Source: Lepisosteus oculatus
Lineage: Eukaryota > Chordata > Actinopteri > Semionotiformes > Lepisosteidae
Reading direction: 5' to 3'
NCBI RefSeq assembly: GCF_040954835.1
Contig: NC_090698.1
Location: 51,346,284 to 51,410,283, forward strand
Length of the DNA stretch: 64,000 nucleotides
Below are positions 2,337 through 64,000 of the stretch, in pieces. Every line of letters starts with the position of its first letter. Position 1 is the first letter of the stretch. Under the pieces are notes generated by a model that was given only the letters and a program-made list of their open reading frames with translations, ran no database searches and was not told where the DNA came from. The translations under genes and the position numbers were made by a program.

Positions 2337-5300
2337 TATGATAATGAAAGGTTAGATAGATGAGTTGTTACTTACTATTTTGTTGTCTGAGGAGATAATT
2401 AAAACTGTGATATCCCTCATGGGAAAGCTGAAAAAGAACAGGAAGAAGCTATTCTTTACACGCCTTACTGTTAAAAGGAAAAAACATAACTTTGATGTTG
2501 CAACATCTGTAGGGCATTTTCTCAGTGTCTCAATATTTCAAAAGACTTGGATGTGAGCAAACCATAATTGTCATTTGAATATTCAAAACATTTGACTTTA
2601 GTTTATCAGGAACGGTGTGATTTTAAACACAAAGCTGTGTGCAAGATATGACCGTCTTATTAAGCACTCATCATTTTGAGGAAAAAGTCGGACTGGAAAG
2701 TGGTTGTGACAGACACATTTTCTGACTTTCCTTGTATATAATATTCCTATAAACAAACCATGGCATACAAGAGCCTGCATGTATGGAAATAGTTTAACCC
2801 AAACATCCTCTTTGTAAATTTTTCTTGTCCAGCATTACCTTTTAGCAGCTGCTCAACTGTTTAAATACAAGCAAGTACAGAATGGATATATTGTGAAAAA
2901 AAAAATAGCAATATTGTGCTTTGGAGACTGCCGATAATCCAGGGCATTCACTGAGGCAATCTGAGTGAAGAGGAAAATGCCAGCGTCCCACCCAGGATAC
3001 CACTCAGCTCCCTAACCACAATTCCAGCTTTCTGTTATAGGGTGGAATAATTCACTGTCTTGTGAAATTGTTTTCATTTCTCGCAGCCTATTTTATTGCA
3101 ACTTCCCTTTATTTCTCAAGACCGAAAGCTCTGTTTAGCATGATTTGACTTGGCTGCAATCATCACTAACACCAAGGAAATTCAGTAGTGATGTGGTATC
3201 GTATGTCCTGTTGGTCGATGATAAAATTCTCTCAAAACTAAAGAGGTTTTACAGAAAAAAAATGAAAATATTCCCTATTATATAATATTCAATATAATAT
3301 TCTTGCCTACCCTAAATACAGTATTTCATTTCACTCAAATATTCATTTTTTTTGGATAAATCTGAATTTACCACAAGAGACTTAATCACAAGAGAACTGT
3401 AATGCTATTTTGTGTTTAGGTATTTAATCAAAGAGTCAGATATGCAGATATGATATGTTCATCCAACACAGTACAAACTGTGGACAGGTATTTTACAATT
3501 TTAGACTTATTGATAGGAAACAAATAGATCAAATGTATCAAGACAAACATTGAACAGCTTTCCTGATTGTATAAAGTATTTTGCTGGTGAAACCATACTG
3601 ATCTGGCATATACTGTATGGCTACATTTGCTTTTAATTAATTAATTATCTTTTCTGAAAATTAATTTTGAGTAAATCACCAGATCATTAAAAATGAGGTT
3701 TTTATATTACCAACAGAACAAGCAAGATAACTTTAATTGCATCTTAGTATTTTTTTTAATTTTTCAGCAATTAAGTTTCTATAAAAAATCAATAAACTTG
3801 GTCATTTTATATTTAATTGGCCAGTAGTGCAATCAAGTTTCTGTGTTTCTTTCTAACATCAGATATTCTGGAAGCTCCAAAATTGATGGATTTTGGAGAT
3901 CCAAAACAGGTGTTTTCCTATGAGTAAAGTAGATAATGAAAACATAAGTAAAGTTTTAACTTTGATTTTGTTAAGCTATCTGTGAACATCCTTAAATGGT
4001 AACAGTATATGCTATTATCAAAACAGTAAACTGCATCTACTGTACATGCTTTTACCTTGAGTTAAAAGGATTATGTGGTGAACAGTGTTTTCCTACAAAG
4101 AAATGTTACCACAGGAAACAGCTGTTTTAGGATTGATATTTAAAAATATTGTTAAGATGCAAATAATGTAGCCACAATCTACTATTGATTTAAATGTCTG
4201 TTGTTGCTGGAAAGTGAGTTTTTACATTAAGGCTGTTTAAGCAAAGATGGATTTATCCACTGTACCTATAATTTGATATGCAATGTTATTTGTTTAGAAC
4301 ATTGTCACAATTGTAATATTCTACTGTAGGTTAAAACGTTCAAAAGATCGAATCTCCAACTACTTATGCATGAGATAAATCATATATCTAATTAACTTAA
4401 GGAAAGAGTGACTTTCTGTTCTTTTTCTGTGTAAGTACCAGGCCATGATATCCAGTTTTGCATAGAAATATACCCCTAAAATGTGTGATGTAAATATTGT
4501 AAAAACTTTTGAAATGGACTGTGTTTTTTAGTGTACATAATATTAGACATTTGTTCCCCAAATCACTTCTTATTTATGTCAAAGTAGCTGTGATAGAGCT
4601 CAGTTACTAAATACTTTCTCTGCTACAATGAATACTGTGTCCGCGTCATGTTGAAATACAGAAAAGATTCCGAATTCATGGCCCAGTCACAACCATTTTT
4701 AAAGGGTTAATTGGGTTCTCGAGGGAATACATGAATTTCTTATGGGAACGGAGCCATAAATCTATAAGAAACTAAAATCAATCTTTCTGCTTTCTCCGTG
4801 TACTTTATTTTTCATTACAATGGATTCATTCTCATCCAAATGTTGCCTTCAGTCCTTTCGCTGTTATGTAGGGCCCTTCTGTTTGAGCATTACATTAATA
4901 AGCACCCGTTTTCTGCATTGTCATACTTTACAAGTCACAGCATCATAGCTTTTTACCTTCAAGTTGTTTTTCTGAAGCAAGCTGTTGTTTGTGAGTGAAT
5001 TGTTCTGTATGAATGTTTTAATGTTTGTTTTTTTACAAAGGCTGAACTTTCACTTTGTTTAATAATACAACATGAAGGAAGTAACCTTTGCATTTATAGT
5101 CTGACAAACCAGATATTAAATGTTATAAGCCAGATAACATTTGAACAGAGGAAAAGGCTTACCAGATTTGAATTATTTTAAATGTATTCATAATTTAACA
5201 ATAAGGTGTAGATTTGTTATTTTAAAAAAATATCCCTAATCTAGTTACAGTCCACTGGAATTCATAGTGACCACAAATTAGCAGTTGTTAATCTTGATTG

Positions 5301-8600: not shown

Positions 8601-11600
8601 TGTAAGTGTAGATATCTATTAGGATAAAAAAATCCAGATGACAGCATTTTTTGCGATTATAGTTAAATATGAGAAGCACTGTTGAATTCCAGGGGGTCAA
8701 CCTTTCTGAATGAGAAATTCTACAAATATAGCATGCTTTTCCCTTTTACACTTAATGTAGAATAATTATTTTATAGCAAATTATTTTAGTGATTAATCTA
8801 AAATAAAAGTAAGATGATTTTATTTTTACATTATTTTTATCATCAAACTCTATCAAGCTGATATGTGCTATATCAGCTTCTCTGCTTGTGGTATAACTTT
8901 TGTCAGATTGCATATGTGCACATGTGTCATGCTGTGCTTCTTGATTCATATTTTCTTAAACACAAAAAGAATGTTGTTTGTTGTTTTCTGCTAAATACAA
9001 ATGTTTGTGTTGTCGTTTTCTATAGAGATCAATGAAAAAGAAATCCATTACTCACAGTTATACATTACAATAACAGCTATGCAAACTCTCAGACATTTTC
9101 ATTATTAAAATGAGTTTAACACCAACATTCTTGTAAGGTACAAAATGTGTAAATGCCCTTTTTAGCTCGTGATGTGGGAAAGATGATCATGGAAGCTTGT
9201 GATGTGTATTTTCATTTGTGCTTACAAGTGTGGAAGTGAGACCTTCCTCACTTTCAGATGTAATGAATCCCCAGTAGTGCAAGCTGTCCAAAACCAGCTG
9301 CAATCTAACTTACAGCTGTCACACCTTGAGTTTTCACTGTAATACTATAGTTATAGTCAGTCCTTCCTCAGCTGTGTGTGCTGTCTATGAAAGCAGTCAA
9401 TGATGCCTTGAGTAGCACAGCACAGAGCAGGATGTCTCCGCCAAAAATGTCAATTGCTCTTCAGTAATGGAATTGCAATGTAAGTAGAGGTACAATTACA
9501 CTGAACTACTGTGTTCGTCTGATGGACATTTCATTAGTCCTGTCTTCTTGAGCGGGAGTTTCAAATTATACTTTCATTTTTTTTTGCCAAAGTTTACTCC
9601 TTCTTTAAATGCACGGTTGTTTTAATTTCGATAGTAGAAGTCAGTTGCATCACTGTCTAAAGCACATCCAAGAGAACTGGTTTGTATGCTGCATATACTG
9701 TAGATTTTGTGGTTCTGGATAGCCCTATGTAATGTATTAATGTGATTTGGAAATTCAAAAGTGGGTATTTTGTGTAGAGAAAGTTATTTGAAGTGATGCT
9801 TTTAATAAAATCCCCGCTTTGCATCTCATGTGAAGTGTGGATTGAAATCAAAAGGAAAAATTGTGTTATACAGTATGTGAACAGTGCATTAATCCATTTT
9901 TTAACCTCTTCATCCAATAGGGAAGCAACAAGCACAAAGCAGGATGCACCCTGAACAGGCCTCCAGTCCATCACACACAGACACACACTCACACTAGGGC
10001 TAATTTTTCCCAGATGCCAATTAACCTATCAATACTGTATGTCTCTGGACTGTGGGCAGAACTGGAATGCCCAGATGAAACCCATGCAAACACAGGGAGA
10101 ACATACAAACTCCAAGCAGACAACACACAAAGTCCAGAACTGAACCCTGAGCCCTAGCACTGCAAGGCAGTAATGCTACCATTTCTCTACCATGACTCCC
10201 ACTTTATATTAATTTATTATCTCCCTCTGATGAAAAATGTCAAGTTTAATCTATACATTCAGTTTCGGCTTCTTAGTGACCTGCATTATATACACAGAAC
10301 ATTTGTATCCACATTATTAATTCAAGTGCAGGAGACTTGTTACAGAATGATGAATAATTTGTAGTTTTAAAATAATTTTAATACTTTTAATAAACTTATT
10401 ATTACATTTACATTTGCCAGAGAATTAAAAGATAATTTCAGAAATTATTTTTTTATTTTTTAATCCCAAAAGCCTGTTTATACTATCATAGTGAAATTTG
10501 TCCTCCCTTTATATCCTTTGATTAACCCCTGTAACCTTTAACCTATTATCATTAACAACCTTTGTATTATTGTTGTTTAAGAGCAAACACTCTATTAAAC
10601 ACTTAAAGGAGTTTAGGTAATGTGCTGTGTGTCCATCAACCTCCTTATTGTGATGTGCCTGTTTCCTTGTTGTTGACTCAGCCCCTTCAATGACCGGCCC
10701 ATGTGCAGGATCTGCCATGAAGGCAATGGGCAGGAGGACCTGCTTTCGCCCTGCGAGTGTACAGGAACCCTGGGCACCATCCACCGCAGCTGCCTGGAGC
10801 ACTGGCTGTCCGCCTCCAATACGAGTTTCTGTGAGCTCTGCCACTTCAAATTCAATGTGGAGCGCAAAGCCAGGCCACTCCTTGAGGTAAGGAGCACGGC
10901 CCAGCCCTCGTCCCAGACGTGTGCAGCTTGTTTGCAGTTTTGCGGGGAAGCTGCCAGTTACTGACCGGTTGAGCCATTGAATGCAATTTGTTTGACTTTA
11001 GAAGCAAGGGTGAATCTTCCACTGCTTGAGGCTGCTTGAGGCTTTACACAGGCTTTACACAAGCTGCTTAACTTAAAGATGGATTATAAATGGAATGCTC
11101 GTTTTTCCTCGGTTGATATATTTTTAAATAACATTTTACCTGCAGCTGCCTTTGTGGTGTTTCTAGATGTGAACCCAAATGTACATATCATAACTCAAAT
11201 CGGATATTAACAGCTCCAAAAATGTTAGCTACTAATTCAAGTAGATGAGCCTGAAAAATGGTGTTTGTTTTGTTGGTCCAATAATGTTTTGTTTTTAATG
11301 TGCCATTCAAAGAATTTGCTGCCTGCAACACAATGTTTTTTTTGTATTATCCGCTATGACTTAATTGCGGTGATTAATAGGCTGTTCATACGAAAAATTG
11401 GTTTTCTATTGTGATGGAGCAGCACTTAATTCCCTGCTGCTGATGTTTCTTGAAACATGCCCAGAGAAACTTTAAGAGAAAAGTAATCCATGAACTGATA
11501 CAAGTTTTTACAAGGCGAATATAAATGTGCACTATCAGCAAGCAGGCTGAAGCTGCCAGTAATATATTAAGTTGTAAGTTGCAGAATTAACAAACTAATA

Positions 11601-28884: not shown

Positions 28885-46879
<17,995 letters not shown>

Positions 46880-49800
46880 TGTAACAAAAGAAGCAAATGT
46901 AGGAGACCAAATTGCGAAACAAAGCAGGCCGAAAAAAAACCTATGCAGGACAAAATCCCTAAAAGTACAAAAAAAAAACCAATATGTAGATTTTCCCACA
47001 AAGCCAAGCTATTTATAAAATCAAGGAGCAGAAATCATATATTTATCGTGATTCCCTTCTTTAAAAAAATATTATAAATACAAAAGGGGTATAATGAAGC
47101 CAATAAAAAAGAAAAAAAGCGCAAGCAAAGCAAAAAGGGAAAAGCAAGCTAGGAATTGACCAAAAAAAACCCTACAAACCGCCTCCCTTCACTTTGTCTC
47201 CCAACCGAATGAAAGAAAGGGTTTGACTAATATGGCCGCTCATTAGCATCTAACAGCAACGTGACTGTATGAAACCAATGATATAAAGTAACGAAAGCCG
47301 TCCTTTCAAATTGCGAGTTTGAGACAAAATTCAAAATAAATCCTAAACGCACGTGTGCAGTTTAGCAGCAATTTGTAATGTATGTTGACTATCAAAATAA
47401 ACTTTTCTTTCAGGTTTTAGAAAATAATATATACAGATGGTGTATAATGACTACATGTTTCTGGCGTCATTTTGATGACTTTGATAATTCTTGATTGACT
47501 GTGATAGACTCGATTGATTGTCTAACCGCTGAACCACTTCGTTAGTAAGAGACGTAATCGGGCACCGGTGAAAAAGTGACTACACGAAAGCAAAACACAA
47601 AATAAAACGATTGACCAGTTATTTCACAGGACAACGCCTATTGTTCGTCTGCATCTTTGGATGGAAATCGCCGGTAGTGTAACCAAGATTATGTGGGTAG
47701 TTTACATTGGTGGACATGTAAGTAAGGTGCAAATGTAGAACGATTCGTTTATTGCCGCAGACCAGACGGAGAGGTTTAAATTGCCTTCACAGGAGTATGT
47801 AGTCTCTACAAATCTTCACTATTAAACCAGAGTGTACAGAGCTACATTTACTAAGTCCTGAAATACTGTATCTTCTGCTGCGCTTCCCTGCCGACTCGGG
47901 AAGGTATTGAATAGGACAACACTTGTACTAACGCTGGTCCTGTAACGGCTTTCTTGCGCGATAGAAATGCGACAGCAGTGCAGTGGATGCTATTTGACTT
48001 GAGCCATTTTGAAAAGTTGTCGGATTTATTCTCACGATGTGTGGCATCTAAAGTTTGGAGATCTACTATAAGTAACATAGACTCTATGTGAGGAATGAGT
48101 CAGAATCCCGCAAACAACGCAATCTGAAAGTTTTACAAAGCCCGAGTCGCAGCTCTACAGCTTTTATTGCCTCCAAAAGTTTATAGACCTCTTTGGATAA
48201 CAAATGTTGATCAGCACGATGAGCTGTTGCGATGCTTTTTTAAGTTTTTGATGCTCAATATTATAAGGTTTTGTGGTTTCTGTTTTTGATTGCCTTAATT
48301 AACAAGACTTGATTGTAGTGCCATACTGTAGTTGCATGTATAATGCAAGGATGTTTTTTAGAAATTTTAATTTAATAACCAGTTTTCTTCCAAATATTTT
48401 AAGCATCCATATTTATAGTACTGAATTTACATTCTATACATATTTAATATTCCTAGGAATATACCTTGAATCAGTTCCCATAAATTTCAGAAGAGGTCTG
48501 GAGGCATGCATTACTTTATACTAATTTATGAAACAAACACCCTGGTAATTGTTAATCGTTGGATATAATTTAGATTTAAATCTATCATTTTTTACAGAAT
48601 TTTTTCATTGTTTTTTTTCACACAAAAAGTTGGAATCTTCGTTCAAAAGTTGCTAAAGCAAACAATGGATATGAAGTACTGTAAATTCTATGAACTGTAA
48701 TGATTTGCTTTCTTGATAGAAATGTGAAGAAGAGATATAGGTGCTAGACTTTTCTAACATTTTTTCTTGCTTCTATAGGATAGCCATCAACCAGTAACAG
48801 AGATAAAAAGTGGCCCAAACTTAGGTAACCTTTTGCTTCATTTCTAAACGGTACTGTATGTACAATTATTTTCAACACTGCTGTAAAAATTGTTGCATTT
48901 AACAAATGTAATCCTTATAAATAGCAAAAACTGTTTGAGATATGCATTCTTTTTATTGAAATTGAATGCACTTGAATATTATCCAGTGTGAAAATTATCA
49001 CCAAAGCTTTGTTCTTTACATAACAAAAGTATAGGGCTCTTTACAATTTTATTAAATTTTATTAGCTACTTTGGAAAAATGGTGACACAGAAAAATTGTG
49101 TTTGAAATGGGCAAAGGTTAGCTACCCTTCCTACAACTGTGCTTTAAAGGGTTCAGAGGGACTGAGTGTCTTCATGCCAGTCAGCTCAAAGCCCTTTATT
49201 CTGAATTTGCTCCAGATGGCATAAGAATCAATTCTGAGGAAAATCATTTCATTTTTAACCTTCCACACCTCTCCCAACACAACACCTGAATAGTTTAATA
49301 GATCATCTTTTTAAATAATAAAAATATGATTTATTGGGCCCACTTGATAACTAGTTTGGGAACTGCAATATTTATAATTTTTTAACAATACTAGGGCTAC
49401 TTTCATGAGCTCAACTTAGGGACAGGAGTGGGAGGCCTCCTCATTTGTCATTTGTCTCCTCTTAGCTTTGGCTCCATGGAATCAAAAGTACATTTTTGTT
49501 CATACTCACTTTTTAAAAAAAATCCCACTTGATAATCCCACTAACAATTCAGGAAATATGAAATGTCTCTGCTGTGCCTTTAGCTGTCACATTTTCATAC
49601 CATGATCTCAGAATCCTCTGATAATGAATGGGAATTCAGCAGTATTAACAAATACAATTATATCTTTTACACAACTTTAAAACAAGTCTATATTGTGTAG
49701 TTTAAATGTGAAATTCTGGGAGGTGGTGAGAAGAAATAATCCATATCTTAAATCATACCTTCTTTGAGTATTTAAAATATTTATAATCTCACCACCAGAG

Positions 49801-50855: not shown

Positions 50856-53800
50856 TTATATTCCTTGGATCTGCTGTTGTACTTTATATTCAGCCCGTCT
50901 GTCCAGTGTGCGCTGGCGGAACATCACAAGGACGGCAAACAGGGTGCTGAACGTCAGCATAGCACCTTCGAACTTCCAGAACTTCAGCTCCTCTGCGGCG
51001 GCAGAGCGACAACTAAAATGCAAATAAATCACTTTTTCAGCTAGCAAATCTGTTATTATTGCGCAGTTAATGACAGCCTTTACATCTCTAAAATCTCCTC
51101 TGCTGCGTACAGCAGATGTTTTTACAAATAGCGCAGTCTTACAGCAGAACAGTGTCAGAAAGCCATGAAGGACATTGTCCAATTCAACATCACAACTAAA
51201 GGAATTTAAAAGGTTTGTCCACAGCTGGCTGAGGATCCAAACCAATGGGGAAAAAATGATGATGGTTGATGTAAAATTAAATGTGGCCATTTTACAGTAC
51301 GATATTTTGTAGTTTTAATAAAACAACACAATATAATAAACCATTTTGAAAAGACTGGAAAAATTAATCATTTACAGTAGATATACATAAATTAATTCTA
51401 ACACAAGCTGTAATGAACGATTTTGAAATAATCTCCTTGGGTTAATAAGCCACAACAAAAAGAAGATGAAAGGCCATATTTCAAGAATGATGTAATACAG
51501 CCATACAAATTGTCATAAGATTGTTAATGTGAAAATATGCAAAAATATCAAACAATACTTGTCTTAAGGGCTATTCAAGTATAGAATAAGCTACTATACC
51601 TACTGATGTTGTAGAGGTCAATACCCTGGCCTCTTGCAACTAATTGAGATCCTTGCCTCTACTACCAATTGGGCTAAATGGGCCAAATGGCCTCATTTCA
51701 TTTGTAACCCTCCTAATGTTCTTACCTTCTATGTTCAATGAGGCCTGAGGTGTTGCACTTCAGTTCTTCTACAAAGCCAGAAAAAGTACACTGTGCTTCA
51801 GTTTTCTGTACAAAACAGCAAAGGCGAGCAAGTCAGTCAAATTAATTCATATATCCACACACTGTACAATGATCTCTTGAACATCCTACAGCTCCATTTG
51901 ATTTTGGTGTCTTTTTAAGAATATTGTGTGATCTCAAGTAATTCTATAAAAGGAAGCACTTTTTAACACACTTCTTATAATAAATCAAAGACAATACTAT
52001 GCTCAATGGAATGAACTCTGATACTAACAATAGTAAGTAGTATCAGAAGAAGACCAAGAGGAGCAAATAAAGCATCATTCTAATAAGCTTGATTCTTATT
52101 CTGAAATGTTTTCCTTTATATCCAATGAAGTGTTACCTTTACTGCTTCATCCCTGGGAAGGAAAACCATACAAGACCTTATTATTCTCTAATTATAAACA
52201 CTTCCTTTTCACATTCTGCCTTTCATTCATCCACATCTGGGCACAGACATGAACATATGGATTGATTTACCATCTGATAATCTCTGCACAGAAAGCATGT
52301 GCGCAGCACTGTAAATTCTTCTGTCTCCCAACAATGAAGTGGCTGTGCACTGCTAGCTGAAAAAAAATGAATTAGAGACACATTTAAAATATGTGAATTG
52401 TGCATTCAGCTCATATTTAGTGGTTTTCTTTTAAATGTTCACTATTCATGAGGTTTCATTTGACCAAATCATAATGCAAATACTTACACATTTCATTCTG
52501 TGTTAATGGTGCTCCATCACAGGATCTATAAAATATAAAATTATATAGGATTATTTTTACAGCCTAGAAAATTCTATCAGTGGAGTCTAGCTGACTACAA
52601 AGTGACCTACAATTTTATTCCAAGCTTAATTGCTCTAAAATAATTGATCACATTATTAGTTGACTGGACAAAATTGAATGCTTCTATCAAGAAATAAAAA
52701 GTTTTAGAGTTAATAATTTACTTTATTCTATCATTCGATATTATCCTTGTCCAGTTGACCAATTCAGATAACTGAGAACAAGAACTGGAATGAAGAGCAG
52801 AAGGACTGAAGCCCTCTAGAAGATGGTTTAATATTACTTGTTTATACAAAAAGTGATGGCATAAACAAGACAAACCATATACTAAATATTTCAGGTGGGT
52901 AGCTGCGTCAGCATGCGTAGGCTGCAAAGGAACAAGTAATAGGTTTATTCCATGCTGAAAAAAAGAAGAAAGAGAACACAACGTTTCAGCCGTGGAGCCT
53001 TCTTCAGGTGTCAAAATATACGATATACTAAATATATTACCCCAAAATAAGTTAGCAAGAGATAAGAATAAACCCCATTTCCCTAAGTAAATGATTCCCC
53101 CTGCTGGTACAAATGTGTAAGTGTTAAAACTAAAACTATAATTCACTGGACTGTAACATAACTATAGTATAGCTGAAAACAGTATAAAATGTTTGTTATG
53201 CGAAACACAGATTTTAGATTCGGCTACACCATAAATTTACAAAGTAAAAGAAATCATTTTTAATAAGGCTTTTTTTGTTCATTGTTGACTGTAGAAACCT
53301 AAATGCTAAATTTCCCTTCTAAACAAATTATTTCGGCATTAATTTAGGGGCTTTTCGTGGTTTCGATGATATTATTCATACCCATCCATCCATTTTCTAA
53401 CCGCTTCTTCCAATTCAGGATCACGGTGACTATTCCGGCAAACGGCGAGTGCAAGGCAGAAACCAGAGCACCCAGAGGAAACCCATGCAAATATGGAGAG
53501 AACATACAAACTTCACACAGATAGCATCACAGGTCCAGAACTGAAGCTATGGCGCTAGTGCTGAGAGTTAGCAATGCTAACTACTGTGCTTTCCATTGTT
53601 CATACCATTTCAACAAAATGCCTTTTCTTTGTAATATTTTATTTAAATAAGACATTTCTAAGCACATTTTCTCTATAAGATTTATTTTACCATTTGTTTC
53701 GGGGAAATTGATCTTTATTGTGATGCAAAGCATTACTGTTTTCTCCTCCAGTCTGTTCTGAAGGCTTCTCATACCAGCAATGAAGGATGTTAATGAAATA

Positions 53801-54685
53801 TACACGCGGTTTTCAGTCTTAACAAGAAAGCAGCATGGAGCCTCTTTCAAGTAGCCAGAAACCACTGTTTCATAAAGTTCAGTAGTTTCATAATGTACAG
53901 TAGTTGTTCCTTAAACCAATCAGCAGTGAAAATGAAATAGAATTGATTTGGAGAAGGGCAGCATGGTAGCACAGTGGCTGGCATCCTTGCTTTGCAGTGC
54001 CGTGACCCCGGGTTCAATTCACGAGCTGTTATCTGTTATCTGTGTGTTCGTATGGGTTTCCTCTGGGTACTCTAGTTTCCTCCCTCAGCCCCAACACATA
54101 GTACAGTACATACTGTGCTGATAGGTTAATTGGCTTCGGTGAAAACTGGCCCTTGTATGAGTGTGTTTGTGTCTTTCTGTGTGAGCCCTGAGGTGGACTG
54201 GATTCCTGTACAGGGTGTACCCGGGCCTTGCACCCACTGCTTGCTGGGATAGGTTCCAGCTCCCCTACAACCCCGTATTGGATGAAGCAATTAGAAAATG
54301 GGTGAATGATCTGGACAACAGTTCAATGGTAACCAAACCCGATATCCAATTACATAATGATCCGATTATAAAAAAAACCCATAAAGGTCAAACTCATAAA
54401 TCAGGGACAGAACTGAAATACCATTTTTGCATGCACACATCACTGGTAAAAAAAAGTACTTTATCATCACAGAAGCCACATCATGTTTATAGAATGTTAA
54501 TCAGGAGAGCCTGTGTAAAACATCCCACTGAAAGTAACATACTGGTAGACATACACACACTTGAAAACAAATAAACAAATAAATCAAACAGTTAAGCAAT
54601 CTTAAAACCTTTCTGCTTACCTAATGATTATTAAACTCCAACTCATCCATAAAGAAGACAAAGCACAGAAGCAGCTGAAGTACAT
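50856..54685 (-). CDS. JTB: JTB-family type I membrane protein (5 coding exons)
   Basis: CDS is complement(join(50856..51012, 51726..51805, 52271..52356, 52488..52525, 54621..54685)): 426 nt, 141 aa (human JTB 146). All four introns are GT-AG and the phases match: ATTAG|GTAAGC to ATAG|ATCC; GAAATGT|GTAAGT to TTTCAG|CTAG; CAGATG|GTAAAT to TACAG|AAAA; AGAAG|GTAAGA to TTTAG|TTGT. The signal peptide is residues 1-21, and the ectodomain has Cys 24, 43, 55, 58, 69, 80 and 91 and a sequon at Asn81. FWKFEGAM leads into one membrane span (about 103-121), then a basic tail with RQRTLDRRAE. CRSA...FWKFEGA and RQRxLDR are JTB signatures. The start at 54685 has A at -3 and an in-frame stop upstream. Human JTB is linked to cytokinesis and mitochondria. 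The ectodomain is diverged (TCFLC where human has ECSPC), so it could be a paralogue. Confidence 0.9.
51570..51725 (+). repeat. LINE 3'-end and tail abutting the JTB exon 4 donor
   Basis: AGAATAAGCTACTATACC, TGATGTTGTAGAGG and AATTGAGATCC resemble a LINE protein end (xWNKLPSDVVE). The tail GGGCCAAATGGCCTC, CATTTGTAA and ATGTTCTTA follows, a common 3' end in basal ray-finned fish. The final TGTTCTTAC is, on the minus strand, the start of the JTB intron (GTAAGAACA). Confidence 0.6.
52897..53013 (-). repeat. Family R repeat, most complete copy
   Basis: On the plus strand it reads GGTAGCTGCGTCAGCATGCG, AGGCTGCAAAGGAACAAG, TTTATTCCATGCTGAAAAAAAG, then CAACGTTTCAGCCGTGGAGCC and TTCTTCAGGTGTC. On the minus strand the order is CACCTGAAGAAGGCTCCACGGCTGAAACG, pyrimidine tract, CAGCATGGAATAAAC. 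This serves as a reference for the other copies. Confidence 0.7.
53381..53592 (-). repeat. tRNA-derived SINE (copy 4, reverse strand)
   Basis: On the minus strand the tail is GCGGTTAGAAAATGGATGGATGGG at 53381. The body has TGTTCTCTCCATATTTGCATG and TTTCCTCTGGGTGC. It lacks the central GATGGACTGG block. It is inverted relative to the copy at 53955. Confidence 0.8.
53955..54310 (+). repeat. tRNA-derived SINE (copy 5)
   Basis: It has GGGCAGCATGGTAGCACAGTGG, the B-box-like GGTTCAATTC, TTTCCTCCCTCAG, GTGGACTGGATTCC, CTGGGATAGGTTCCAG and a tail AATTAGAAAATGGGTG. The open frame 54215-54574 is largely this SINE tail plus flank and is not a gene. Confidence 0.85.
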
Positions 54686-55379
54686 CCTTGTGTGCCTGTT
54701 TAGTTTTTATGAGGTCACTTGATCTAATTTGTAAACTGACAAAAATACAGAGGGTTATACAGGAACTACTTGTTTCACATAGGCGAACTATGCCTCAAAA
54801 GGTGATTTCGAAAGACTCACATGTACATGTAACATAATATTACAGAATACCCCTATACTGTACTACTGTAATGAAAAGAATGTAAATGTAATTTCTCATG
54901 TACACGTGTGAAAATGATACTATTATAGAAATGTATTAACTAAAATTAGGTTGATTTTAAAATGAACGCTTCGTAAACTTAAAAAAGACAACAACATTAA
55001 AATAAAGTTTCAAGTAGATAAGCTCAATGGCGGTCAACAACAATCAGACGATTAGTATGAACCATCTTGCTGCTTTGACGTGTGCTGCGATTAGTAAACC
55101 CCAGTACGATGTTTTCCCACTGTATTTCAGTGGAAATTTAAACTATGAAGAAGACCCCATTGCTAGTTTAGACATTATGTCATTAATATGTGGTACTTAC
55201 GTGGTCTGTATCTAAGCAGAAATTTGTACTGCTTAAATTAATTAATATCCTGAGGACGACTGCTATATTACCGATGGTCTTAGAATCCCCATTGTAGAGC
55301 TGAATTGACGACTTCGTAACTTTCTAAAAATATCAATAGTGAACAACAAGAACATCACATACCACGCAACTGTTGATGA

Positions 55380-55480
55380 CAACACCGGGAATCACGTCAT
55401 CTGTAGGAAATGCGTTTGATTGATTAGTTGTGAAACCAATAGGACTCCTGTCCATGAGGGCGCCGCGCAGAGGACCAATT
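55380..55480 (-). promoter_or_regulatory. Candidate JTB promoter
   Basis: It lies about 0.7 kb upstream of the JTB ATG. There is a CRE-like TCACGTCA (55392-55399), CCAAT on the plus strand at 55436-55440 and 55475-55479, and a GC-rich GGGCGCCGCGC. A possible non-coding first exon with donor GCGTG|GTATGT near 55363, spliced to an acceptor near 54735 (TTTTTGTCAG), would connect it. All of this is inferred from motifs. Confidence 0.35.
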
Positions 55481-55689
55481 AGAAACCCTCCTCAGGGAAA
55501 GGGACGTTCGGTTTTCTCCTGTGCTCAGTGGGAATCGAGGAACTGGGAGACGTGGAATTCAGAATCGGACTGGACAAGGCAAAGTGCCATACATGAGAAT
55601 AACAGCAACCCGCAAACAAAAATAAATTTTGGCCACTGTAGTAATATTTTAATAATTCTAATTGATATTTAATTATATTTAATTGATTG

Positions 55690-55990
55690 TTTTGCATCGC
55701 TGCTTCGCAGTTCTGGGTTCAGTCCTTGAACTGGGGTGCTGTCTGCGCGGAGTTTGTACGTTCTCTCCTAGTTCGTGTGGGTTTCCTGGGAGCGCCGGTT
55801 TCCACCCAGAGTCAAAATACACACTGGTAGGATAATTGGCTCATGGAAAAATTGGCCCTGGTTTGAACGTATTTGTGTCTGTCTGCCCTGTGAAGAACTG
55901 GAGTCCCATCCAGTATGTACCCTTCCTTGTGCCCGTTGTTTTCCGTAATAGGCTCCAGGTCCACCGTGACCCTTCATTGAATAAGAAAAC
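55690..55990 (+). repeat. tRNA-derived SINE (copy 6, 5'-truncated)
   Basis: CGCTGCTTCGCAG, GGGTTCAGTCC, CGTTCTCTCC, TTTCCTGGGAGCGCC, GAACTGGAGTCCC and AATAGGCTCCAGGTCC match the family in order. It lies between the JTB and LARP6-family starts. Confidence 0.75.
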
Positions 55991-56556
55991 TGAACTAAAC
56001 ACCAATAACACCAAGGAAACGTATTCAGAATTACCAAATGTATAGTACATCGTAATAGGTCAACCCCCATTTAACGTTTCCTTGAAACAATTGTGGAGAC
56101 CACGAACCTGTCACGGAAGCGTTTTCGTTCATTTCAGGCTATAGGTTTAGGTCATTATTTTCCATATAATCGACAAAGTGCAAACTCATTTAGTGATCAC
56201 TTAACGGTATAATTTCCTAAAACGAAACGGTATATTATTGTATTAAATGTAACCAATTTACTATCCAAAGAATAGTGACATAGAATGTTTATTTAAAAGA
56301 AATACATGTTCTGCATGCATAAGGTAAAACACAACAGGGTGACGAAATGAATTACCATATTTGAAAACGTCACTCAAACAAACGTACTAATAAATCAATC
56401 ACCTATGTATTTAGACTTCAAAACCCTGCCTCTTCGCTCATTAACCCAATGAGTCTCCCTCAGAGTCTTTAAATTTAGCTGTTGAGTTTCTTCTGCGTGA
56501 ACTGTGATAGCAGGCAAAGAGATTGGTAGTTTGGAAAAGTGAGCTGGGGGGGAGAT

Positions 56557-59500
56557 ATGGATCGGTTTTGTTGTCAGGTTTCCCCGCTAGACCCTCTGAG
56601 TCTGACACAGCCACCGTTGTACTATGATATGGAGAACCTGATAGGAAAAATGAGCAAATCTGTCCCTCTGATTATAAACGACAATGTAAACGCGAAATGG
56701 AACAGGTTCCAGGAAACGGCATATAGCGCAGATACTGATAGAGAATCCAGCTTGCGAAACAGACCCACAACAAACTTTTTCTTCGACGAAGGGTAAGGCA
56801 AAAGTGTTTTATTCATGTCTGTAAGAACGTGTTTTATCTGGCATGTGTTGTGAAATATTTGTTTTTTTTGTGTCTTGAAGCAGCAGCACGATCATATTTA
56901 AAGGCACGGGTACACTTTTGTGAAGAATAAATAGCCTATATCGTAATTTGGACAAGAAAGCATAGCATTTGTATTTGTAGAATATGCATACGGTATATCT
57001 AACCCAAGTTCATTTATTCTAACTGTGCCGTAATCGTTTGTATTGCTTTCTGGAGTCCATGGTGTGATGAGTTACGTCTTCAGTACAAGAGGAGACGATT
57101 ATATCTGTATATTGGTACTAATAAGCACGCAGCTCCTTTTAGGTTTATAATGGACATACTGTAAGTCGATATCCTATCCCAGTGTATTCACGTCTTTAGT
57201 ACTATACGGTTTAAAAAGTAGCTAAAATACCATTAAGTATCTGTTGACAAAATGATGTAATTTACCAATCCTGTAACAATTAAAACCTGTTTGAACCAAT
57301 GGGTGATATAATTGCAGTTTACTGCATCTGGAGCGCATAACCCTATTCTTAAATGAAACGATTATGTATTTTGAGCATTTGCTGTGGTTGTAATTACGAG
57401 CTCATGTTCGGTTTTTAGCAATCTGAAACGAGATTGTATGATAAGTACTGCAAAATTTTTAAACGGCTCATCGTCTGGGTTTACCGAACACTTATCCAAT
57501 TGAAGTAGAAATGTTCCACTTAAATGAATTAATTTAAGACAGCTGTTCCAGCTTTGTGGTTATGTATATCAATTTATCCGTCTGCATTATACACGTGTAG
57601 AAGGTCACACTTGTACTCGAATGAACTGCACCTTAAAACTGAGTTCAAGACTTTTTAAGCCTACACTGACGTTCTTAAAACGATTTTTTCACACTCGTTT
57701 TATGTCTAGATAATGTAGCTGTAGTTTCTCGGGAGAAGTGAATGGGTAATGTAAATTTAGGGAATGCACAGATCAGGTTGTAGGTCTGAAAAGCAAACCT
57801 CCAGCATTAATGTCTATAGTTTTTGCTTTTACAACTGTAATGTCTGTGCCCTGATCTCCCCAGATTTTCTGACAATGCCTTTGAGAATGACAATGAGGAT
57901 GATGCTGAACTTGATGAGTGGACCCCTCCAGACTCTGATCTCATCCAAAAGATGGTCTCTCAGATAGAGTATTACCTGTCTGATGAAAACCTGGTCAAGG
58001 ATGCTTTCCTTTTGAAACATGTAAAGAGAAACAAGATGGGTTATGTTAATATAAAACTACTGACTTCTTTTAAAAAGGTAAGAAGGAAATTGTTCCACCA
58101 CAGATGATAGAAAAGCTAGATCATGTAAACAAAAAAGAAAACACATTTACATGGAGAATTGAGTTTAGAAGGACTAAGATACTATTAAGAAACTTAATAG
58201 AAGCCTGTGGTGGTTAGAGCAGTTGTATTGATATTAATGTACATTTTAGTTTCATCACTGCATTTCATTTTTTAAATTTTCCATTCCATTATAACTCCAT
58301 TTTTAAGTATCTGAAATATTTTGAAGTTTTTGCATTTTACAATCAACAGATCTTAATGTTTGTAGTTTCAGTGTCCAGCATTTTCCATTCAATGCTTATA
58401 TGCACAATGGGAATGTATTACACATCTGAAGCCCCATGAGCTTTACATAAGCACACGTTTAGTTACAAATGTCTGGAATATAACTGCAAATTGGGGGGGG
58501 GGGAGTTATTTTGCTTATTTTCTCTTAAATTGTGGCTTGTTATTGTAGATTGTCTGACCTTTTCTTTTAAATCATTCCTGCTATTTTTGTGTTCTGAATT
58601 TTTATAATCTTTTTCAAATGTAAAATTTGATTTGATCATTTTTTCCAAAGTATAATTTTGCCAGGGAGTGCAATGAAGCCATGTTAGAACGTTTTACTGA
58701 AGCCCAGAGTAAACACATGACAGGTAACTGGATTTGGCTTCAAACATTTGCAAAATGAACAGTCCTTTATAGTACAAAATTGCTGTGGAGCACTTTTGCC
58801 TGATAAAATGCTTCCTCCTCATGCTGTTTTGGAGGATAGAGCCAGCCTGAACCTCTTTCTTTTTAAGATGAAGCACTTCACAAAGGACTGGAGGGTTACA
58901 GCCTTTGCTTTGCGCCACTCGGCAAATCTGGAGGTCAATGAGGAAGGAAATAAAGTCCGTCGGAAGGTTCCGGTGCCAGAATCCCTCCTAACCCAGGTGC
59001 CAAGCAGAGTCTTGCTGGTATGGAACCTACCAGATGCTGCCACCGTTGACAATCCCAGTACCCTCAAGACAAACAGCATTGAATCAGCTGTTGTGATACT
59101 TGGGGCTTTTGGTACCATTAGCACACTCCGAATCATTCGACCTGGGAAGGACCTTCCTACAGAGATCAGAAAGTATGCATACAAGTACCCTGAGCTTGGA
59201 TCCAAAGAGTGTGTTCTGGTGGAGTATGAGGATCTGGAGGCAGCAGGAAGAGCCTACCATGAGCTCTCTGGTGCCCACAGCACTATGAAGGTGCTCCTTG
59301 TAGGGAAGGGGTCCAGGAAAAAGGCTTCAGCTGAAGCTAGTGCTATAGAAGACAGGGCCATTGCAAAAGGCACGACTGCACTTGGCAGGAGAATGGAACA
59401 GCTGCAGAATGGAGGTGAAGACTCCTCTGCCTATAGCTCTTCTGAGTCCGAGTGCACTCCCTTATCTCCCATGCCCACACAGCAGCTTTATCAAAGCCAG

Positions 59501-59929
59501 GTCCTCAGCCCTTACAGTAACCTCCTCCTGGGAATGTCCCCAAGGTCAAATCCCAGAAGCAGCCCGTGGAGCAGCCCCCGTTCCAGTCCCAGGATCCTCC
59601 AGCCGGCCCCGGCAGTGCACCGCGTGTCTCCGCTCTTGGCCTCCGAGGTGTGGAAGAGCCCGGAAACCAGTCCGGAGCTGTGTAGGCGGTACCTGGATTA
59701 CTCTTCTGACAGTAGCAGCAACCCTGGAAGCCCCTGGGTGCAGAGGCGCAAGCTGGCAGCAGCAAGGGCCTCTTCTCTGGAGGGCAGCCCAAGGCAGAGC
59801 CCTCTAGTGTTAAAGAGGGTCTTAAACGGGGAATCCCTTCCTCCTGGGGTCATTCGCTTTCCCCATGGGCCTGATGGAACTAAAGGGTTCCACAATAGTA
59901 TTGGGAGAGGGAAACTTATCTTTAAGTAG
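56557..59929 (+). CDS. LARP6-family La-related RNA-binding protein (3 coding exons)
   Basis: CDS join(56557..56792, 57864..58077, 58868..59929): 503 aa (human LARP6 491). Phases: GAAGG|GTAAGG to CCCCAG|A, AAAAAG|GTAAGA to TTTAAG|ATG. Exon 2 ends an acidic linker and holds the La motif (about 101-180, with IEYYLSDENLVKDAFLLKH). Exon 3 completes it (KHFTKDW) and adds an RRM-like domain (about 196-297, with RVLLVWN and FGTISTLRI). A basic hinge follows, then a Ser/Pro-rich region with repeated SSPxSSP, and the C-terminal LSA-like motif LPPGVIRFPHGPDGTKGFH (474-492). LARP6 binds collagen mRNA 5' stem-loops and controls their translation in mammals; zebrafish has larp6a and larp6b. The N-terminus differs from human, so orthology to a or b is left open. 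The start at 56557 follows a non-ATG GTG in the same frame. Confidence 0.93.
58493..58503 (+). repeat. Poly-G run in the LARP6-family intron 2
   Basis: Eleven consecutive G in an otherwise AT-rich intron. Such runs are often miscounted in assemblies. Confidence 0.8.
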
Positions 59930-62301: not shown

Positions 62302-64000
62302 GTTTGTTGATTCTGAGCAAATCCTTGGAAACCACACACTGCACCATGGGTAACTTTTAGCAGCACTAAAGCCAGAGGATACCTAAGGCTGCAGGATTGC
62401 AGCACAAATGCACAGAAAGACAGTTACACCCATTAAAGAAAAATGTGATGAAAAATAAGTGGTTTACTTGCATCTTGGATTAAAAAACTACAGAACACTA
62501 CAATTAAACTAAAACAATTTAGGAATCTTTCATTTGTGAGTCCAATTCTATATTTTTTTTTACTGAAAGTGTATTGATATCTGGTTGACCTTGCTAAAAT
62601 ATTTAATATTTTACTTGGAATAGCTAGAGTCCAATTAGAAGATGGGAACACTGCAATATCATGACAATCCAGTCTTATCAAAACACATCACCCACAGGAT
62701 ACATATTAAAGTCTCAGTCATTCCAGATAAATGTAAAAATACTTTTAGACATGAGGCATTGCTGTCAAACCAAGAATGTCAAACTTAGCTTTGACCCTTT
62801 CAGTTAACTAGTTATGTATTGTAGCACTGGAGTCACAAGAACATTCTACTTGTAGCTTGCGCAGTCTTGCCTATCAAAAGTTTACCCTTCATTAAACTGG
62901 TGAAGCTTTGTCCCACCTTTCTACCTGAATATTTGAATATTTTAATAACAATTGGAATACTCACAATGAACACTTTAAATTGTTCAGTTATCTCCAATCC
63001 TATTTCTGTAGAGCCCCATGCAGCAGATCCTATAGGTCATAAATCAATATTTAATCACTTTGAACAATTTCAAAGTGATCAATTCTAGGTGATTTGCTCA
63101 AGTAATTTTGAGATCATTTGAACAAATCTTTACACCACCAGGAGCAGATATTTCGTATCCTTTCAAAGTTTGTGATTTAAAAGACCAGCTTGATGACGCT
63201 TTACCCAAGAAACAATCTGAGGAATTAGAGCAGGGAGCTGTAGGGTGGAACTGGATCATTACTTGCTTAACTGGACAAGTTTAATAGCTTCTTCCAACTC
63301 TTCAGGTGCTGCTGCTTGCAAGACCGAGAACTCCTGCAATCACATCTGCCCTGAAGGACTATAACTTTGTCCGAAAAAGTTGAAATAAAATTAAACAAAC
63401 AGCATTAAGATTTAAATTAAAAGTATTCCTCTTAAAAAGCAAAAGAAAAAAATTGCTTAAATGAATCATATAGGACGGTGTGGTGCTGTAGTGGTTAGCA
63501 ATGCTGCCTCACAGCTCTATGGCCTTGGATTCACCTAGCACCTGTGATAGCAGGTTACTAGCAGATAGCACCTGGATCTTAAGGTGCTATCTGCATGGAG
63601 TTTGTATGTTCTCCCCCTGTTCATCTGGGTTTCTTCAGGTACGCTGATTTCCTCCAACAGGCCAGAGACTTACTGGTTAAATGGGTTAACTCGTTAATTA
63701 GGTTAATGGGCTTCTGGGAAAACTGGCCATGTTGCGAATTTGCATGTGTTTGTTTGTCCTGTGATGGACTGGTATCCCATTCAGGGTGTACCCTGCCTTG
63801 CACACATTGCTTGTCGAGACAGGCTCCGACTCCCCTGTGACCCTGGACCCTATTGGATGAAGTAGTCAGAAAATGGATGAATGGATTAGATATATTCAAA
63901 ACATATAAGTGTAAGTATTGTAAAGTTTCTGATATCATATCTGATATAATTTGTAGTAGCATTTAAACAAAAATGTAAAAGAAAAACACTTAATATACTG
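62302..64000. other. SPMIP10 upstream region and window end
   Basis: No coding exon is recognised. GTTACCCATGG (minus sense, about 62344-62354) lies close upstream of the SPMIP10 ATG. From 62430 to 63470 the sequence is AT-rich with only small unconvincing ORFs. SINE copy 7 fills most of the end. Confidence 0.5.
63471..63886 (+). repeat. tRNA-derived SINE (copy 7, with internal duplication or insertion)
   Basis: GGACGGTGTGGTGCTGTAGTGG opens a near full-length copy, ending GAAAATGGATGAATGG at 63885. Between the B-box-like region and GGAGTTTGTATGTTCTCC there is an extra block, about 63536-63590, with a repeated AGCACCT and an inverted AGGTGCT. The two ORFs over it are repeat shadows. Confidence 0.85.

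What the first reader, a model, noticed from the sequence alone, without database searches (positions are those of the whole stretch)
50856..54685. JTB-family gene beside LMNB1: possible retained ohnologue absent from the human chromosome 5 locus
The five exons give a 141-aa protein with clear JTB signatures. In human, JTB is at 1q21.3, about 2 Mb from LMNA at 1q22, while LMNB1 is at 5q23. LMNA and LMNB1 are genome-duplication paralogues, so a JTB next to LMNB1 is what one would expect of a second JTB copy kept from the same duplication. The ectodomain differs from human JTB (TCFLC instead of ECSPC; little similarity near the N-terminus), fitting a separate paralogue rather than plain JTB moved here.
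Basis: partly seen in the sequence, partly recalled or inferred. Interest (0 to 1): 0.8.

Follow-up and report, generated by a model that had tools for sequence, protein, structure and literature searches.

The report
Second JTB gene beside LMNB1
This vertebrate genome carries two copies of the small membrane-protein gene JTB, and the one beside the nuclear lamin gene LMNB1 looks like a duplicate kept from the genome doublings at the origin of vertebrates, next to a third copy of another gene, LARP6.

Summary
The five-exon JTB gene is real: minus strand, 50856-54685, 4 of 4 introns GT..AG, 141 aa, Pfam JTB E=1.1e-36. Searches of its own genome found one other JTB, on C30, with the same intron phases (2,1,0,2) and equal lengths of exons 3, 4 and 5. 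The C30 copy is closer to human JTB (61 of 99 residues; window copy 46 of 99, human sequence recalled). It has CREB3L4-like and SLC39A1-like genes within 65 kb and an LMNA-like lamin 0.52 Mb away. Chromosomes C3, C5, C30 and C32 each carry a lamin, a tropomyosin and a strong MADS-box row read as MEF2. C3 and C30 thus belong to one four-fold block of the early vertebrate duplications. On its other side the second JTB has a LARP6; the two other LARP6 rows are on C5 and on C32, the latter 33 kb from the C32 lamin. Zebrafish has two larp6 genes (PMC7055395, passages). Not tested: other vertebrates, absence from human chromosome 5, a rooted tree, expression, function.

The parts
54621..54685 (-). 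Second JTB, coding exon 1 (start codon, hydrophobic signal-peptide-like stretch)
   Evidence: GT donor; in-frame stop upstream of the ATG; hydropathy peak at residues 3-21; it matched only itself. The least conserved exon, so the start is the least certain part of the model
52488..52525 (-). Second JTB, coding exon 2
   Evidence: AG/GT sites; intron phases 2 before and 1 after, as in the C30 copy
52271..52356 (-). Second JTB, coding exon 3 (CW motif, TCFLC)
   Evidence: 86 bases, same length as in the C30 copy
51726..51805 (-). Second JTB, coding exon 4 (rest of cysteine-rich ectodomain)
   Evidence: 80 bases, same length as in the C30 copy; junction with exon 5 at Ser|Cys as reported for human
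50856..51012 (-). Second JTB, coding exon 5 (transmembrane-like segment, tail, stop)
   Evidence: 157 bases, same length as in the C30 copy; Pfam JTB row at genome level
46511..47008 (-). Reading frame holding the first coding exon of LMNB1 (lamin head and start of rod)
57864..58077 (+). LARP6 (third copy in this genome), exon with La motif
   Evidence: Pfam La E=3.3e-18; splice sites read by eye
58868..59929 (+). LARP6 (third copy in this genome), last coding exon
   Evidence: (SUZ-C); start of the exon read by eye
54501..58000 (.). CpG-rich interval between the diverging JTB and LARP6 genes, possible shared promoter region
   Evidence: 1-kb windows starting 54501-57001 have CpG o/e 0.66-0.90, window median 0.24

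Best explanation
The gene is an intact second JTB, kept since one of the two whole-genome duplications at the base of vertebrates. The ancestral chromosome carried lamin, JTB and LARP6 close together. After the duplications four descendants existed: here C3, C5, C30 and C32. JTB survives on C30 (the ordinary JTB, near an LMNA-like lamin) and on C3 (this gene, between LMNB1 and LARP6). LARP6 survives on C3, C5 and C32. The product is inferred to be a type I membrane protein with a signal peptide, a six-cysteine midkine-like ectodomain, one transmembrane helix and a short basic cytoplasmic tail. It most likely works as a JTB of altered partner specificity or expression: its ectodomain has changed more than its membrane segment and tail. 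Shown: gene structure, second copy, paralogon membership, conserved cysteines. Inferred: timing at the early vertebrate duplications, ancestral gene block, protein topology and function.
For: One other JTB found in the genome. Same intron phases, equal lengths of exons 3-5, exon 4/5 junction at Ser|Cys as in human: a copy made at DNA level, not a retrocopy. Lamins on C3, C5, C30, C32; tropomyosin rows on the same four, 12 of 13 rows; strong MADS-box rows on the same four, 4 of 6 rows, the other two weak and on C17. C30 lamin is LMNA-like and 0.52 Mb from C30 JTB. LARP6 on C3, C5, C32; on C32 it is 33 kb from the lamin and in the same relative orientation as on C3. The window copy is equally far from C30 JTB (47 of 99) and human JTB (46 of 99), while these two share 61 of 99.
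Against: Order is not conserved on C30: lamin and JTB are 0.52 Mb apart and JTB lies downstream of the lamin, whereas on C3 it lies upstream. On C5 lamin and LARP6 are 13 Mb apart. No JTB trace was found between lamin and LARP6 on C32, where RPL36 and LONP1 lie instead. Three sequences without an outgroup cannot root the tree. The window copy has the longer branch (18 private changes against 3 and 4), so its age rests on synteny more than on sequence. RAB13, RPS27 and HAX1 (recalled queries) gave no match in the 200 kb around C30 JTB. One tropomyosin row lies on C28.
Confidence: 0.92

Rival explanations
1. Lineage-specific duplication: JTB was copied from C30 (as DNA) and inserted beside LMNB1 in this animal's own lineage, then evolved fast.
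For: Only this genome could be examined; the window copy has many private changes.
Against: Landing beside a lamin, when the other JTB is also near a lamin on a sister chromosome of the same paralogon, would be a coincidence. By my arithmetic about 0.35% of a 1.2 Gb genome lies within 0.52 Mb of one of four lamins. The window copy is not clearly closer to the C30 copy than to human JTB (47 against 46 of 99).
Confidence: 0.05
2. Decaying relic: the gene is an ohnologue but no longer works.
For: Lower identity to human JTB than the C30 copy has; no expression data.
Against: Intact frame, GT..AG at 4 of 4 introns, six ectodomain cysteines and the hydrophobic segments kept. First and second codon positions agree more than third ones between the copies (0.646, 0.646, 0.333), as under protein-level constraint, though the two loci also differ in base composition.
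Confidence: 0.05
3. Plain JTB moved here, with no paralogue involved.
For: It belongs to the JTB family.
Against: A JTB that resembles human JTB more is present on C30, near CREB3L4-like and SLC39A1-like genes.
Confidence: 0.01

Closest known systems
Human JTB (UniProt O76095 per PMC12292960; ectodomain structure 2kjx)
   Same: Pfam JTB over residues 33-138, six ectodomain cysteines, exon 4/5 junction at Ser|Cys, membrane segment and tail
   Different: 46 of 99 identical from the CW motif on (human recalled); different N-terminus; next to LMNB1, whereas PMC12562924 names CREB3L4 and RAB13 as flanking human JTB
JTB on C30 of the same genome
   Same: Intron phases 2,1,0,2; exons 3-5 of 86, 80, 157 bases
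   Different: 47 of 99 identical; 157 aa; near an LMNA-like lamin, CREB3L4-like and SLC39A1-like genes
Zebrafish larp6a and larp6b (PMC7055395, passages seen)
   Same: The neighbour at 57.9-59.9 kb is a LARP6 with La motif
   Different: Zebrafish is reported to have two larp6 genes; here 3 LARP6 rows were found. C32 fits larp6b by neighbours that I recall as human 19p13.3 genes, C5 is closest to human LARP6 (219 of 340, human recalled), and the window copy is the third

Membership tests
JTB family (PF05439) | Match to the family profile above its curated cut-off | tested here: met
   125.7 bits against 22.1
JTB family (PF05439) | Six ectodomain cysteines of the midkine-like fold | tested here: met
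   Six of six align with 2kjx; the fold itself was not modelled
JTB family (PF05439) | Signal peptide and single transmembrane segment | tested here: inconclusive
   Hydropathy peaks at residues 3-21 and 103-121; no dedicated predictor run
JTB family (PF05439) | Role in mitosis/cytokinesis as reported for human JTB | not testable with these tools
   Literature only (PMC12292960, PMC10572688, passages seen)
2R ohnologue of JTB | Second copy in the genome with the same intron phases and matching exons | tested here: met
2R ohnologue of JTB | Both copies lie in one four-fold paralogon | tested here: met
   Lamin, tropomyosin and MADS-box (read as MEF2) rows on each of C3, C5, C30, C32
2R ohnologue of JTB | Gene tree with the split before the shark/bony fish divergence | not testable with these tools
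   No other vertebrate genome could be searched; viral contigs and genome-contig scans gave no relative
LARP6 family (neighbour) | La motif followed by a LARP6-type last exon ending in a SUZ-C motif | tested here: met
   Pfam La E=3.3e-18, SUZ-C E=1.2e-4, 22.1 bits against 21.1, 143 of 342 identical to human LARP6 as recalled

The most novel reading that the evidence does not exclude
Vertebrates began with a tight lamin-JTB-LARP6 gene block. Some living lineages keep, beside LMNB1, a second JTB and a third LARP6 that share a divergent CpG-rich promoter and act together, for example in oocytes or early embryos, as a module lost from mammals and zebrafish.
Probability: 0.2. Interest if true: 0.65.

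Novelty: new member of a known kind. Interest (0 to 1): 0.45.

Why it matters
The passages that I saw of three JTB papers (PMC10572688, PMC12292960, PMC12562924) mention no JTB paralogue. A second, anciently separated copy gives a comparison for which ectodomain residues matter, and a marker for the fate of the paralogon that I recall as human 1q21/5q23/15q/19p13. Together with a third LARP6 it suggests that a small pre-duplication block around the lamin gene can still be read in a living genome.

Tried and rejected
Searched the 33 kb between lamin and LARP6 on C32 for a JTB relic with tblastn (best E 0.14, through stops) and a three-sequence profile (best E 0.25): chance level. The weak C17 (E 0.11) and C16 (E 0.89) rows were taken as chance and not looked at further. 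The LTD domain search for lamins gave one row, on C19 below the cut-off, and did not help. tblastx of the window against 200 kb of C30 was dominated by repeats; among the rows printed, 51014-50856 and 52333-52265 were the JTB exon matches (output cut at 3,000 characters). Viral contigs: 2 stretches matched a pattern, none a JTB; genome contigs: 51 stretches, none a JTB. Paper searches: JTB with LMNB1 and synteny (0 papers), full gene name with paralog (3) or zebrafish (0), jtb with spotted gar (13), lamin terms with gar (11), larp6b (5), jtb with ohnolog (17), LARP6 with vertebrate, paralog, genome duplication and fish (1), at least two of full gene name, midkine and extracellular domain (213, of which 20 listed). 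In these listings (titles and starts of abstracts) I saw no report of a second JTB gene. Many 'jtb' hits are probably journal abbreviations; I did not check them paper by paper. LARP6 exon 1 of the window copy was looked for and not found. No tRNA and no Rfam family at gathering score in the window. Structure prediction was not run, because the spliced protein is not contiguous in the DNA.

Full report
The gene. On the minus strand five exons (54621-54685, 52488-52525, 52271-52356, 51726-51805, 50856-51012) join into one frame of 141 codons and a stop, with GT..AG at 4 of 4 introns. The protein matches Pfam JTB with E=1.1e-36 and the human JTB ectodomain 2kjx with E=1.4e-10, six of six cysteines aligned.

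The second copy. The window is C3:51346284-51410283 of a 1.2 Gb assembly of 813 contigs. A search of that assembly with the JTB family gave 3 rows: two exons of the window gene and one exon on C30 at 3.650 Mb. With the C30 protein at E up to 10 there were 6 rows: four on the C30 gene, one on the window gene, one weak row on C17 (E 0.11). With the window protein there were 7 rows: five on the window gene, the weakest being its short exon 2 (E 0.81), one on C30, and one weak row on C16 (E 0.89). The tool scores only its best candidates, so this shows two recognisable JTB genes, not proof that no third exists. I assembled the C30 gene as five exons (3648186-3648295, 3648753-3648793, 3649391-3649476, 3649562-3649641, 3650506-3650662). 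Intron phases are 2,1,0,2 in both genes, and exons 3, 4 and 5 have equal lengths (86, 80, 157). The exon 4/5 junction falls at Ser|Cys in both, where PMC12562924 (section 2.1 read) places it in human.

Which copy is the ordinary JTB. From the CW motif to the end, 99 positions align without gaps. C30 and human share 61, the window copy shares 47 with C30 and 46 with human. At 18 positions C30 and human agree against the window copy, at 3 window and human agree against C30, at 4 window and C30 agree against human. Near C30 JTB lie a CREB3L4-like gene (3.630 Mb) and an SLC39A1-like gene (3.585 Mb) (recalled queries). PMC12562924 names CREB3L4 and RAB13 as flanking human JTB. RAB13, RPS27 and HAX1 gave no match in that 200 kb.

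The paralogon. A lamin first-exon query gave 31 rows. Besides the window gene, the strongest are C30:3.126 Mb (63%), C5:43.006 Mb (56%) and C32:4.785 Mb (59%), with a second C32 row at 4.783 Mb (60%). The other 26 rows, the first on C31 at E 4.4e-12, are taken to be other intermediate-filament genes and were not checked one by one. The C30 lamin begins METPGPKRTP and matches lamin A/C at 171 bits, against 131 bits for the window lamin, so it is read as LMNA; no B-type lamin was among the listed structures. The tropomyosin family gave 13 rows: three on each of C3, C5, C30 and C32, each set within 50 kb, and one on C28 with two internal stops; 3 of the 12 other rows also hold stops, as expected of reads through introns. 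I then predicted that MEF2 genes would lie on the same four chromosomes; the prediction was written in a note sent in the same batch as the search, before its answer was seen. The MADS-box search gave 6 rows: one strong row each on C3 (72.28 Mb), C5 (54.18 Mb), C30 (4.50 Mb) and C32 (6.97 Mb), and two weak rows on C17, probably SRF. The rows were named MEF2 from expectation and strength, not from a closer comparison. By my arithmetic four genes would fall one each on these four chromosomes by chance with probability about 6 in a million, taking C5 at its minimum length of 57.6 Mb.

The neighbour on the other side. The reading frame at 58.7-59.9 kb holds the last exon of a LARP6, and the exon at 57864-58077 carries the La motif (Pfam E=3.3e-18). 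A genome search gave 3 rows: C3 (this one), C5:56.40 Mb (46%) and C32:4.818 Mb (42%). C5 LARP6 is the closest to human LARP6 (219 of 340; window copy 143 of 342; C32 117 of 341, human sequence recalled). An unrooted tree of the four placed the window copy with C32, without support values. C32 LARP6 lies 33 kb from the C32 lamin, with lamin on minus and LARP6 on plus, as on C3. Between them lie RPL36 and LONP1, which I recall as human 19p13.3 genes; on that ground the C32 lamin is read as LMNB2. PMC7055395 (passages seen) reports two zebrafish larp6 genes, larp6b sharing nrtn and ranbp3 with amniotes, which I also recall as 19p13.3 genes. The window LARP6 is therefore most likely a third one, not among the two zebrafish genes. 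No JTB trace was found between lamin and LARP6 on C32. On C5 lamin and LARP6 are 13 Mb apart.

Interpretation. Lamin and LARP6 close together on C3 and C32, JTB between them on C3, and lamin and JTB within 0.52 Mb on C30 are most simply explained by an ancestral lamin-JTB-LARP6 block, duplicated twice, with JTB kept on C3 and C30 and LARP6 kept on C3, C5 and C32. Gene order on C30 has been rearranged: JTB is downstream of the lamin there, upstream of LMNB1 here.

Constraint and function. Codon positions 1, 2 and 3 agree between the two copies at 0.646, 0.646 and 0.333, and 28 of 47 identical residues use different codons; dS could not be estimated. This fits an old split under protein-level constraint, though differing base composition of the two loci adds to the third-position differences. 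Six ectodomain cysteines, a hydrophobic start and a transmembrane-like segment are kept. Identity between the copies is 23 of 54 in the ectodomain part and 24 of 45 in membrane segment and tail. Human JTB is described as a transmembrane protein with an ectodomain related to midkine, interacting with Aurora kinases A and B in mitosis (PMC12292960, passages seen). I infer the same topology and a related role with altered partners or expression. CpG observed/expected is 0.66-0.90 in 1-kb windows from 54.5 to 58.0 kb against a window median of 0.24, so the diverging JTB and LARP6 genes may share a promoter region; this is suggestive only.

What stays open. The repeats look fish-like to me from memory, and the gene counts found here (four lamins, four strong MADS-box rows, four tropomyosin sites) give no sign of an extra, teleost-type duplication; this is inference. 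In the listings of the paper searches I saw no report of a second JTB gene. PMC12292960 uses JTB1 and JTB2 for human protein isoforms, so those names should be avoided here.

Noticed in passing
window 57864-59929 (+): A LARP6 gene beside the second JTB, distinct from the copies on C5 and C32 and probably not among the two reported zebrafish larp6 genes.
   Followed up: partly
G000:C32:4785600-4818600 (L039-L042): An LMNB2-like lamin, RPL36, LONP1 and a LARP6 lie within about 33 kb; lamin and LARP6 have the same relative orientation as on C3.
   Followed up: partly
window 54501-58000: Long interval rich in CpG for its low GC content between diverging JTB and LARP6, like the one over the LMNB1 start at 44.5-48.5 kb.
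   Followed up: partly
window 10677-10964 (+): RING-variant (RINGv) exon, probably MARCHF3, which I recall as the usual LMNB1 neighbour.
   Followed up: no
window 53948-54310, 55768-56070, 63621-63962: Degenerate repeats that resemble, from memory, the tails of fish SINEs; the first lies inside JTB intron 1. Matching pieces recur on C30.
   Followed up: no
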